Below are positions 31,403 through 36,788 of a stretch of DNA of 64,000 nucleotides, one piece after another. The position numbers were made by a program, and so were the translations under genes. The notes below the pieces were generated by a model. That model was not told the origin of the DNA and did no database searches. It worked only from the letters and a program-made list of their open reading frames with translations. This stretch comes from Candidatus Kuenenia stuttgartensis (GTDB taxonomy: Bacteria; Planctomycetota; Planctomycetia; Gemmatales; Gemmataceae). The stretch lies in NCBI GenBank assembly GCA_945875585.1, contig CAMCLK010000013.1:1-64000 (forward strand), read 5' to 3'. Each line of letters starts with the position of its first letter. The first letter of the stretch is position 1.

Positions 31403-32869
31403 TCAGACAGTGGATGTTTTCACTACCATGTCGGCTGCTGTGTGGCTGGCAAGGCCTGCCCGCCCGATGATGATCGGTTTGAATTCACCGGGCGCCATTT
31501 TTACCAACTGGTTGTGCATGCGCTGCCGCATTTCACTGGCCAGATCCGTGACTTCCTCCAATTCCTCCTGCGTCATCACGCCGTGGGGATAGAGAATTTT
31601 GATGAGCCCGGATCCAATACGTTCTATGGCGGTCATGTCGCGTTTGGTCATGCCGGTGTGGAACGACTGGGAACGAATCTTGTCGATGAACGATTCCTCG
31701 CGCATCTTGACCATGATTTCACCGAAGTGATCCGTTACGAATCCCGCGCCAGTGGCCATCGATTCCGGACCGATCTTTGGTATTTCCCAGCCGGGAAGAT
31801 ACGCATGGATGCGGTCCAGAAATGCCGTGTCTTCCAAAACATTAGGCAGCGGATCTACATAAGTTTTGTAGCGTATATGAGGCATTCCATCTGTTACATC
31901 AATATTGCCACTGAAAACCACGCCCGCATCGGAAGCGAATGAGAGTGATCCGCGCGTGAAGGTTCCGCTTTCCATGTAATCTTTCAGCATGGTGACGGTG
32001 CTGTCCTCTTCCGGGAAGACCGCGTGGGCGATTTCGTCGAACACAACCACCTTCCGTGTGCCGAGAATCCCAACGGCACGGGTCGCCAGATTCACGAACA
32101 GATTGGCTGGTGTGGTCTTTCCTTCGGAAAGAGTGAACACGCGGGGTGACAGGTTGCGCAGCAGGAATGTCTTTCCCGTTTGCCGCGGTCCTAGCTCCAA
32201 AAGGTTGATGTTTTTTTCGACCAGTGGAACCAGACGTGTGAGCAACAACAATTTGACGCGACGCGAAGCGAATACCGACGGATTGTAGCCTGATGACGTG
32301 AGGATCAGGTCGATCCATTCATCGGTGCCGAACAGCGCGCGTGCCTGACGGTGGGCCGCCAAGTCGGGTGGCCCAATCTGAAACGGGGTGAATTTTGTAA
32401 TTTCATTGGGAGCTTTGCTGTCAGCCTCCGGGTTGTATTTCACAACCACCGTGCCCCACAGCCCACCCAGCAATAGACCCACGTTCTTTTCAAGCACAGT
32501 GGCGTCGATCCGCGCTTTGGTTTCGTTAAGCGCGGGAATGGTTGCCCATCGTTGGCCCTTGTTCAGATCAACGCGCACCTCGATCTGGTCGATTATTGTG
32601 AGTTCACCGCTGCTTAGTAGGCGCTCTTTTAGTAATTCACGTTCTTCAAAGGAAGGCAGTAGGAGTTTGATTCGCTCCTGCAGTTCTGCAAGGTCCGTCT
32701 TCCAGGTATCGCGGCGAACCTTCTTGGCCACAAGGTATTCGCTCACATACCGAGGCAGGCGGTCCAGCGCGTTCTGACGCGCCAGTGCTTTGATGACCAC
32801 GCGGTCGCCCAGATTTTCGAGAACCTTGTTATCGAGTGGTGTGAGAGGGAAATCAGCAAACTGGGACAT
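31403..32869 (-). CDS. brxL-like: BrxL-like AAA+ protein, without a Lon protease domain
   Basis: This 488-residue protein matches BrxL of BREX phage-defence systems. The N-terminal part has LPRYVSEYLVAKKVRR and GLLLGGLWGTVVVKYN, then ALFGTDEWIDLIL and the AAA+ core: Walker A GPRQTGKT (227-234), Walker B VVVFDE (274-279) and a sensor-1-like FSGNIDV (about 319-325). Classical BrxL is about 670-700 residues and ends in a Lon-type (S16) protease domain; here the protein stops about 65 residues after a conserved GAGFVTDHFGEI segment, so no Ser-Lys dyad is present. Short forms are known in this family. No other BREX gene (PglX, PglZ, BrxC) is in the window. BrxL binds and translocates DNA in known systems. 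AAGG precedes the ATG. Confidence 0.85.
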   Translation of the reverse strand: MSQFADFPLTPLDNKVLENLGDRVVIKALARQNALDRLPRYVSEYLVAKKVRRDTWKTDLAELQERIKLLLPSFEERELLKERLLSSGELTIIDQIEVRVDLNKGQRWATIPALNETKARIDATVLEKNVGLLLGGLWGTVVVKYNPEADSKAPNEITKFTPFQIGPPDLAAHRQARALFGTDEWIDLILTSSGYNPSVFASRRVKLLLLTRLVPLVEKNINLLELGPRQTGKTFLLRNLSPRVFTLSEGKTTPANLFVNLATRAVGILGTRKVVVFDEIAHAVFPEEDSTVTMLKDYMESGTFTRGSLSFASDAGVVFSGNIDVTDGMPHIRYKTYVDPLPNVLEDTAFLDRIHAYLPGWEIPKIGPESMATGAGFVTDHFGEIMVKMREESFIDKIRSQSFHTGMTKRDMTAIERIGSGLIKILYPHGVMTQEELEEVTDLASEMRQRMHNQLVKMAPGEFKPIIIGRAGLASHTAADMVVKTSTV

Positions 32870-34915: not shown

Positions 34916-35491
34916 ATGATAATGAAAGATCTTCACATGCTTGATCTCAATATGCTTCGAAAACGTTGCGCCCAAGGTGAGGTGTTTGATTATCTCCACT
35001 TCTGGGGCCATGCGAAGCAACCAGGTTCAGCTATGACCAAAGCCTGCTTGAGCCAGTGGTTCGACGCGCCATTTGTCGTTGACGGAATCACCTACGCCAC
35101 GGCTGAACACTGGATGATGGCTTCCAAAGCGAATCTTTTCAATGACGACGAAACCCGCTTGCGGATTGTGGCCTCAAAAGACCCTGCTGATGCCAAGGCA
35201 TTGGGGCGGCGGGTACGGAATTACGTTGAAAACCTATGGAAGGATGCTTGCAGGCGCATCGTTACCGAGGGAAACGTCGCTAAGTTCAGTCAGAACGAAA
35301 CCCTGAAGGATTTTCTGCTCTCTACGGGTTCAGCTGTTCTGGTGGAAGCCAGTCCTTACGACCGCGTCTGGGGCATTGGTTTGAAGGAAGACGACCAAGG
35401 CGCAACCCATCCAGATACATGGGAAGGTGATAACCTGCTAGGGTTTGCACTCATGGACGTTCGCGAGATTCTTCGCCAAGCCCAAGGCTGA
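34916..35491 (+). CDS. NADAR (YbiA-like) family protein
   Basis: This 191-residue protein has the NADAR signature: LHFWGH near the N-terminus, CLSQWFDAPFVVDGITYATAEHWMMASKA, ANLFND, VWGIGL and NLLGFALMDVREIL. Family members bind ADP-ribose-like ligands; YbiA-type enzymes cleave N-glycosidic bonds of riboflavin intermediates, and other NADAR proteins remove ADP-ribose from DNA or act in phage conflicts. Which applies here is unknown. No clear ribosome site is seen, so the start could be one of several in-frame ATGs (34916, 34922, 34937). It stands alone between a terminator and a small transporter gene. Confidence 0.87.
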   Translation: MIMKDLHMLDLNMLRKRCAQGEVFDYLHFWGHAKQPGSAMTKACLSQWFDAPFVVDGITYATAEHWMMASKANLFNDDETRLRIVASKDPADAKALGRRVRNYVENLWKDACRRIVTEGNVAKFSQNETLKDFLLSTGSAVLVEASPYDRVWGIGLKEDDQGATHPDTWEGDNLLGFALMDVREILRQAQG

Positions 35492-36158: not shown

Positions 36159-36213
36159 CACCCTCATAGGGTTGTTGTGGAGCTGCATACCCGGTTTCTC
36201 GGATCCGGCCAAA

Positions 36214-36450
36214 ATGAATCTGAATACTGACCACCTCAAACGTTGCATCGAAACTTTGTGTTTGTCGCTCATAATGTCAATCGATGCCGTGGAACGCTGG
36301 TTTGCTTACCGTGACAACCGCAACAACACCGCCCACGACTACGGTGAAAACTTCGCCAAGGAAACGCTGTGTTTGATTCCAAGCTTCATTGATGATGTGT
36401 CGCAAGTCGAAGCCATCCTGCGCCAACGCTTCAACGAGGGAAACAACTAA
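36214..36450 (+). CDS. HEPN-like (HI0074-type) partner, apparently internally shortened
   Basis: This 78-residue protein is related to HI0074-family nucleotidyltransferase substrate-binding proteins (HEPN). It begins LNTDHLKRCIETLCLSL, the usual first helix, and jumps directly to AVERWFAYRDNRNNTAHDYGENFA, the usual last helices, with the Rx4-6H-type motif RNNTAH. Typical members are roughly 130-145 residues, so the middle two helices appear to be missing without loss of frame. The stop overlaps the ATG of the nucleotidyltransferase gene by one base. It may be inactive or a minimal variant. The start at 36214 is the only ATG that gives the family N-terminus; the ribosome site is weak. Confidence 0.75.
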   Translation: MNLNTDHLKRCIETLCLSLIMSIDAVERWFAYRDNRNNTAHDYGENFAKETLCLIPSFIDDVSQVEAILRQRFNEGNN

Positions 36451-36788
36451 TGCCCGAACAACCGCTGCAAACGCTGAATTTACGACCTAAGCACTTGCAA
36501 ATGGTGCGTGCACTGCTTCAACAGCACTTGCCCCTTGCCGAAGTCTGGGCCTACGGGAGCCGTGTCAACGGCAACGGCCATGAAGCCAGTGATCTTGATC
36601 TGGTGGTTCGTCAGCCTACCGGCTTGAATATGGCCGAAATCCGCGAAGCATGTGTGGAAAGCAATCTGCCCATACGGGTGGAAATCGTGGACTGGGCATG
36701 TGTTCCAGCCAACTTTCATAACGAAATCGAACGATCATATGTGGTGGTGCAAAAAGCGCAAATCCATGGCGCGCACCTTGAACCATGA
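36450..36788 (+). CDS. MNT-type minimal nucleotidyltransferase
   Basis: This 112-residue protein is a minimal nucleotidyltransferase of the MNT family. The catalytic loop is GSRVNGNGHEASDLDLV (GSx10DxD) and the third acid is likely in VEIVDW. In MNT/HEPN toxin-antitoxin modules this enzyme adds AMP groups to the HEPN partner and blocks it. It looks intact, while its partner upstream, overlapping by one base, is shortened. Homologues are common in aquatic and soil bacteria and often transferred. No other defence gene is adjacent. Confidence 0.87.
   Translation: MPEQPLQTLNLRPKHLQMVRALLQQHLPLAEVWAYGSRVNGNGHEASDLDLVVRQPTGLNMAEIREACVESNLPIRVEIVDWACVPANFHNEIERSYVVVQKAQIHGAHLEP

What the first reader, a model, noticed from the sequence alone, without database searches (positions are those of the whole stretch)
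31403..32869. Lone BrxL-like AAA+ protein without a Lon protease domain and without other BREX genes
The N-terminal and AAA+ parts are intact (Walker A, Walker B, sensor 1), yet the protein ends where the S16 protease domain of long BrxL should begin, and no methylase PglX, phosphatase PglZ or ATPase BrxC is seen in 64 kb. Known BrxL forms DNA-binding ring assemblies, so a stand-alone short form could be a defence or DNA-handling protein in its own right.
Basis: partly seen in the sequence, partly recalled or inferred. Interest (0 to 1): 0.6.

Follow-up and report, generated by a model that had tools for sequence, protein, structure and literature searches.

The report
BREX-free BrxL paired with membrane partner
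A gene that looks like a stray part of a bacterial anti-virus system (BREX) belongs instead to a separate two-gene module: its ATP-driven ring protein is inherited with an undescribed, apparently membrane-anchored partner, and many of its relatives also carry what looks like a working protease that this copy has lost.

Summary
Window 31403-32869 (minus strand) encodes an intact 488-aa protein with BrxL N-domain and AAA+ ATPase that stops at the linker where an S16/Lon domain would begin; no BREX gene was found on its contig. The short form alone is not new (TIGR02688 is a full-length 449-aa BrxL model). The new part is what it belongs to. In 102 genomes of the order, this protein falls in a BrxL clade separate from BREX-encoded BrxL. 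The clade is inherited with a second gene ("gene A": N-terminal hydrophobic helix, HhH-containing coiled coil, TerB, J-like domain, C-terminal motif RxNPDLDxxFG): 30 genomes have both, 70 neither; one exception each way is at a contig end. Usually gene A lies directly upstream of brxL; in the window's genus it sits elsewhere (G000:C9, beside rpsL-rpsG-fusA). Many clade members keep a Lon domain with Ser and Lys aligned to E. coli Lon S679/K722; Type-1 BrxL lack them. The window lineage lost that domain. The gene is syntenic in three species and under purifying selection. The genome also holds a separate Type-1 BREX island, cut by a contig end. Function is inferred: a membrane-tethered AAA+ machine, ancestrally a Lon-type protease, ATPase-only here.

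The parts
31403..32869 (-). brxL-like gene, 488 aa, short member of a BREX-independent BrxL clade
32435..32809 (-). BrxL_N domain (PF20442, residues 21-145; DNA-binding HTH/OB region in BrxL literature)
   Evidence: PMC12839542
31478..32401 (-). BrxL_ATPase AAA+ domain (PF13337, residues 157-464)
   Evidence: fold match to BrxL 8EMC/8EMH, E about 3e-33
32168..32191 (-). Walker A GPRQTGKT (residues 227-234), invariant in 24 clade members
32027..32053 (-). Walker B region KVVVFDEIA (residues 273-281); E279 aligns with the Walker B Glu (E280) of Acinetobacter BrxL
31904..31906 (-). Sensor-1 Asn322, invariant in the clade
31403..31477 (-). C-terminal tail ending at the linker (AxDL region) where the Lon/S16 domain starts in long relatives

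Best explanation
The gene encodes the AAA+ ring subunit of a BREX-independent two-gene module found mainly in one planctomycete order (probably Gemmatales; name inferred). The second subunit, gene A, has an N-terminal hydrophobic helix, a long coiled-coil hairpin carrying a helix-hairpin-helix, usually a TerB domain, a degenerate J-like three-helix domain and a conserved C-terminal motif RxNPDLDxxFG. SHOWN (computed): the clade, the co-inheritance, the operon layout, the intact ATPase motifs, the Lon-type Ser and Lys in long members, and the clean absence of the Lon domain in the window's lineage, where gene A lies unlinked beside rpsL-rpsG-fusA. INFERRED: gene A anchors the ring at the membrane and presents DNA or protein to it through its HhH, TerB and J-like parts and its C-terminal motif; the ring uses ATP to load on DNA and/or unfold substrate; long members then degrade it (a Lon-type protease in genomes that otherwise mostly lack canonical Lon), while short members act as ATPase-only unfoldase, translocase or clamp. 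The genes sit in ordinary chromosomal context, so I favour a cellular maintenance or stress role over dedicated phage defence, but weakly.
For: Separate clade: phmmer scores above 600 bits for clade members against at most 367 for BREX-linked BrxL in the same order; tree support 99 SH-aLRT, or 94/84 with phage sequences added as sister. No clade copy lies beside a BrxC or PglZ hit, and four genomes (G034, G035, G040, G112) have a clade copy and a BREX-linked BrxL at separate places. Partner: gene A immediately upstream, same strand, in 15 of 24 loci by BLAST clustering and in more by HMM; genome-level co-occurrence 30 both / 70 neither / 1 + 1, Fisher p 1.6e-23, or 4e-11 at genus level. Outside the order the clade's two f91 genomes also have a TerB protein ending RRDNPDLDAIFG 15 bp upstream. 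In the window genome gene A is G000:C9:78784-80250, 263 bits, with the tail DPRYNPDLDAALGL, next to rpsL-rpsG-fusA. Lon residues: Ser and Lys of long members align with E. coli Lon S679/K722, 35% identity over 194 residues, while a Type-1 BrxL has E and P there; no Type-1-like BrxL has the GPSAG motif. No canonical Lon and no separate Lon_C protein in short-form genomes, including single-contig G003 and 100%-complete G030 and G012. Constraint: 81-82% aa identity and conserved gene order in two congeners; dN/dS 0.085 (NG86) or 0.038 (YN00) between the two closer species. Gene A model pLDDT 86.8; TerB fold match 2h5n, prob 1.0; J-like: hhalign score 28 against at most 12.9 in 20 column shuffles.
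Against: No experiment and no predicted complex: physical interaction of the two proteins is inferred from co-inheritance and operons only. The HhH matches are mostly below Pfam cut-offs. The J-like assignment rests on one profile comparison; Pfam gives no DnaJ hit. The membrane helix is read from sequence and the model only. Gene A evolves fast (47-48% identity within the genus), and the short-form genomes lack the protease, so proteolysis cannot be the shared function. Distribution within the order is patchy (31 of 102 genomes), which a defence module would also show.
Confidence: 0.5

Rival explanations
1. A two-gene anti-phage defence system derived from BrxL: gene A senses or binds invading DNA at the membrane and recruits the ring, with or without proteolysis.
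For: BrxL is a restriction factor in BREX (PMC10164562); patchy distribution in the order (31 of 102); other relatives of the protein are in defence loci.
Against: Chromosomal context is housekeeping-like (rpsL-rpsG-fusA next to gene A; syntenic neighbours of brxL in three species); strong constraint on brxL; no neighbour family other than gene A is common across the 24 loci; gene A gives no relevant PADLOC hit (best DpdE, E 0.015).
Confidence: 0.25
2. A DNA-handling (MCM-like) factor acting in replication, repair or chromosome organisation, with gene A tethering DNA to the membrane; the protease domain is ancillary.
For: Model matches BrxL first and MCM helicases next (E about 1e-5); BrxL assembles on dsDNA with ATP (PMC10164562); sister branch is a stand-alone short BrxL in phage-like contigs of 260 and 350 kb near ParB-like genes; the Lon domain is absent in several lineages.
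Against: Helicase activity of BrxL has not been demonstrated (PMC10164562); long members keep both Lon residues over long divergence, which argues that proteolysis matters in them.
Confidence: 0.2
3. The protein serves in trans as the BrxL of the Type-1 BREX island on contig C48.
For: It is the only BrxL in the assembly and that island is real: BrxA, BrxB, BrxC full-length.
Against: The island is cut by the contig end inside pglX, so its own brxL may simply be missing; G001 and G002 keep the gene without any BrxC hit (both about 81% complete); the clade is distinct from Type-1 BrxL and co-occurs with gene A, not with BrxC.
Confidence: 0.04
4. A decaying leftover of a lost BREX locus.
For: The protein lacks the C-terminal domain of its long relatives.
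Against: Purifying selection, invariant ATPase motifs, conserved synteny, co-retained partner.
Confidence: 0.01

Closest known systems
BrxL of Type-1 BREX (TIGR02653; Acinetobacter BrxL, PDB 8EMC/8EMH)
   Same: N-domain and AAA+ domain, about 32% identity in the fold match; Walker B Glu aligns with E280
   Different: Type-1 BrxL has a Lon-like domain without the catalytic residues and sits in BREX operons; this clade is BREX-free, has gene A, and either keeps Lon Ser/Lys or lacks the domain
TIGR02688 short BrxL model / Type-4 BREX BrxL
   Same: Full-length match above the TIGR02688 cut-off; PMC12839542 describes Type-4 BrxL as lacking C-terminal extensions
   Different: No brxC or pglZ nearby. 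In this order a distant BrxL group of 740-777 aa includes one locus with SspBCD-like genes and branches far away
LonA / LonB proteases (S16)
   Same: C-terminal domain of long members: Pfam Lon_C about 140 bits; Ser and Lys aligned with E. coli S679/K722
   Different: The AAA+ and N-domains are BrxL/MCM-like, not Lon; the window protein has no protease domain
DjlA (membrane TerB + J-domain co-chaperone)
   Same: Gene A has the order N-terminal hydrophobic helix, TerB, J-like C-terminus
   Different: Gene A adds a coiled coil with HhH and an RxNPDLDxxFG tail, and has no clear HPD motif
MCM replicative helicases
   Same: Fold of N-domain plus AAA+ (PMC10164562)
   Different: Low sequence identity (10-14% in the fold matches)

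Membership tests
BrxL protein family (TIGR02688) | Score above curated cut-off over the whole model | tested here: met
   428.3 vs 329.3 bits, model 5-449 of 449
BrxL protein family (TIGR02688) | Intact Walker A/B and sensor 1 | tested here: met
   Invariant in 24 clade members
BREX system | brxL encoded with brxC and pglZ (and usually pglX) | tested here: not met
   None on the window contig; no BrxC or PglZ hit lies beside clade members in the order
BREX system | Phage restriction with site-specific methylation | not testable with these tools
   Needs experiment
Type-4 BREX BrxL | Association with brxC/pglZ (and brxP) | tested here: not met
   BrxC and PglZ absent on the contig and around relatives; brxP itself was not searched
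Lon (S16) protease | Lon_C domain with Ser-Lys dyad | tested here: not met
   Not in the window protein; present in long clade members
BrxL - gene A module (proposed here) | Gene A present in the same genome | tested here: met
   G000:C9:78784-80250, 262.7 bits, model 11-513 of 514
BrxL - gene A module (proposed here) | Gene A directly upstream of brxL | tested here: not met
   Unlinked in the window genus and its nearest sister genus; adjacent in most other members

The most novel reading that the evidence does not exclude
A previously undescribed two-component, membrane-anchored machine: a BrxL/MCM-like ring fused to a Lon-type protease with intact catalytic residues, working with an HhH-TerB-J-like partner, wholly outside BREX. 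In several lineages, the window's included, it has become an ATPase-only version. BrxL in BREX and in large phages would then be relatives of a broader DNA- or protein-remodelling family.
Probability: 0.5. Interest if true: 0.78.

Novelty: new variant of a known kind. Interest (0 to 1): 0.62.

Why it matters
The curated model names such proteins 'BREX system BrxL' (TIGR02688 hits), so they would be counted as BREX fragments, yet this clade is inherited with a different partner and without BREX. It gives BrxL, whose role in BREX is unresolved, a simpler two-protein relative in which its action could be tested. Its long members are predicted active Lon-type proteases where Type-1 BrxL are not, which bears on where the inactive Lon-like domain came from. 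No paper in the held open library mentions BrxL together with TerB or a stand-alone/orphan BrxL; subscription papers and preprints were not searchable.

Tried and rejected
Split protease (Lon domain encoded as a separate gene in short-form genomes): PF05362 search found only weak partial hits, mostly in about 520-aa ORFs of RadA-like size, so rejected. Lon remnant around short genes: none. Gene A remnant in the window: none. Link between loss of TerB in gene A and loss of the Lon domain (3 of 12 short against 0 of 13 long pairs): not significant, p 0.096 (counts compiled by hand). J-domain by Pfam on C-terminal fragments: no hit, so the J-like label rests on hhalign only. Close relatives in named genomes: only the two congeners. 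Plasmids and phages: only BrxL below 40% identity.

Full report
WHAT IS THERE. The ORF at 31403-32869 lies on the minus strand and encodes 488 aa. It carries BrxL_N (PF20442) and BrxL_ATPase (PF13337) and passes the NCBIfam TIGR02688 cut-off over the full 449-position model. The closest solved structures are Acinetobacter BrxL 8EMC/8EMH, and its predicted fold matches these first (E about 3e-33) and MCM helicases next.

THE GENOME. The window is part of contig C13 of a 4.66-Mb, 113-contig, 93.7%-complete assembly. Two congeners found by search are planctomycete MAGs. Only one BrxL is in the assembly, and no PglZ by PF08665. But contig C48 ends inside a Type-1 BREX island: a HEC-05 protein, an integrase-like protein, a HTH regulator, BrxA, BrxB, BrxC and the first ~190 residues of PglX. 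Whether that operon has its own brxL cannot be told.

NOT A BREX FRAGMENT. In the 102 genomes of the order, BrxL homologues fall in two score classes against the window protein: above 600 bits, or at most 367 bits. No member of the high class lies beside a BrxC or PglZ hit, and in four genomes it coexists with a BREX-linked BrxL at another place. A maximum-likelihood tree makes the high class one clade (99 SH-aLRT; 94/84 when phage sequences are added as its sister). In the phylum at large only three of 392 sampled genomes, apart from the window's own, have it.

A PARTNER GENE. Clustering neighbours of 24 clade members showed one family directly upstream on the same strand in 15; an HMM added others. 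Gene A has an N-terminal hydrophobic helix, HhH motifs, TerB (PF05099; absent in a few) and a very conserved C-terminus DxRHNPDLDDVFG. Searching the order with its HMM gave 30 genomes with both genes, 70 with neither, and two exceptions, G019 and G042, in which the single gene lies at a contig end. In the window genome gene A is full-length but unlinked (G000:C9:78784-80250), between rpsL-rpsG-fusA and an RNase-D-like gene (named by eye), with a similar place in both congeners. Gene A is also unlinked in the sister genus g25 and in G027. Two genomes of another family have a TerB protein with the tail RRDNPDLDAIFG 15 bp upstream of the clade brxL, so TerB and the tail, not HhH, are the most widely shared features.

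STRUCTURE OF GENE A. AlphaFold2 gives mean pLDDT 86.8: helix 2-32, a coiled-coil hairpin to residue 212 holding the HhH, TerB 272-377, and a three-helix domain 401-465. Foldseek matches a protein of unknown function over the TerB-sized stretch (2h5n, prob 1.0; I take it to be TerB-like) and HhH-containing Y-family polymerases. The three-helix domain aligns with DnaJ/DjlA J-domains (hhalign score 28; 20 column shuffles at most 12.9), the HPD loop reading xDPxK in the consensus. Pfam did not call it, so J-like is tentative. The overall layout recalls DjlA.

A LON PROTEASE THAT WAS LOST HERE. Long clade members (about 680-725 aa) have Pfam Lon_C at about 140 bits. Their Ser and Lys align with E. 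coli Lon S679 and K722; a Type-1 BrxL has E and P there, and no Type-1-like BrxL carries the GPSAG motif. Short members end at the linker, with no remnant. Basal branches are long; parsimony needs at least three changes of this state. Short-form genomes have no canonical Lon and no separate Lon_C protein, so the protease has not been split off. In most long-form genomes tested the BrxL-type proteins are the only strong Lon_C proteins (G041 has a true Lon).

CONSTRAINT. Gene order around brxL is conserved in two congeners at 81-82% identity. dN/dS between G001 and G002 is 0.085 (NG86) or 0.038 (YN00) for brxL and about 0.2 for gene A. dS against the window species is saturated.

HOW IT LIKELY WORKS. 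Inferred: gene A tethers the ring to the membrane and offers it DNA or protein; the ring assembles with ATP as BrxL does on dsDNA (PMC10164562); long members degrade what they unfold, short ones remodel only. The C-terminal motif is the best guess for a docking site. None of this is shown.

PHAGE RELATIVES. The sister branch of the clade is a short stand-alone BrxL (493-496 aa) on viral contigs of 350 kb (same locus on a 55-kb contig) and 260 kb, beside a polysaccharide deacetylase, an HNH protein and ParB-like genes; gene A was not found in the 5 kb on either side, and no BREX-like gene was evident there by eye.

LIMITS. Most genomes are draft MAGs; co-occurrence counts were compiled from tool tables and are not phylogenetically independent (genus-level test p 4e-11). 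The literature check covers open-licence papers only.

Noticed in passing
G000:C48:18000-36625 (L024): Type-1 BREX island with HEC-05, integrase-like protein, HTH, BrxA, BrxB, BrxC and pglX cut by the contig end; a broken PglX C-terminal fragment lies at C48:22586-22876.
   Followed up: partly
L166 4890-6371, L167 4890-6371, L168 4926-6416: Stand-alone short BrxL on phage-like contigs of 55-350 kb, sister to the window's clade, next to polysaccharide deacetylase, HNH and ParB-like genes.
   Followed up: partly
window 36172-36788 and 34916-35491: A nucleotidyltransferase pair (NTase_sub_bind + MNT-like) and a NADAR-domain gene near brxL give no match at the syntenic place in the two congeners; likely species-specific insertions.
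   Followed up: partly
L085 8811-11060, L086 2806-5028: A distant BrxL group of 740-749 aa; in L085 it sits after SspB/SspC/SspD-like genes, which suggests a phosphorothioation-linked Type-4-like locus.
   Followed up: partly
L037 9183-11222, L039 9076-11106: BREX-linked BrxL (beside PglZ and, in L037, a PglXI-like methylase) that keep GPSAG and the Lon Lys, unlike Type-1 BrxL.
   Followed up: partly
genomes: Most genomes of this family tested appear to lack canonical Lon protease.
   Followed up: partly
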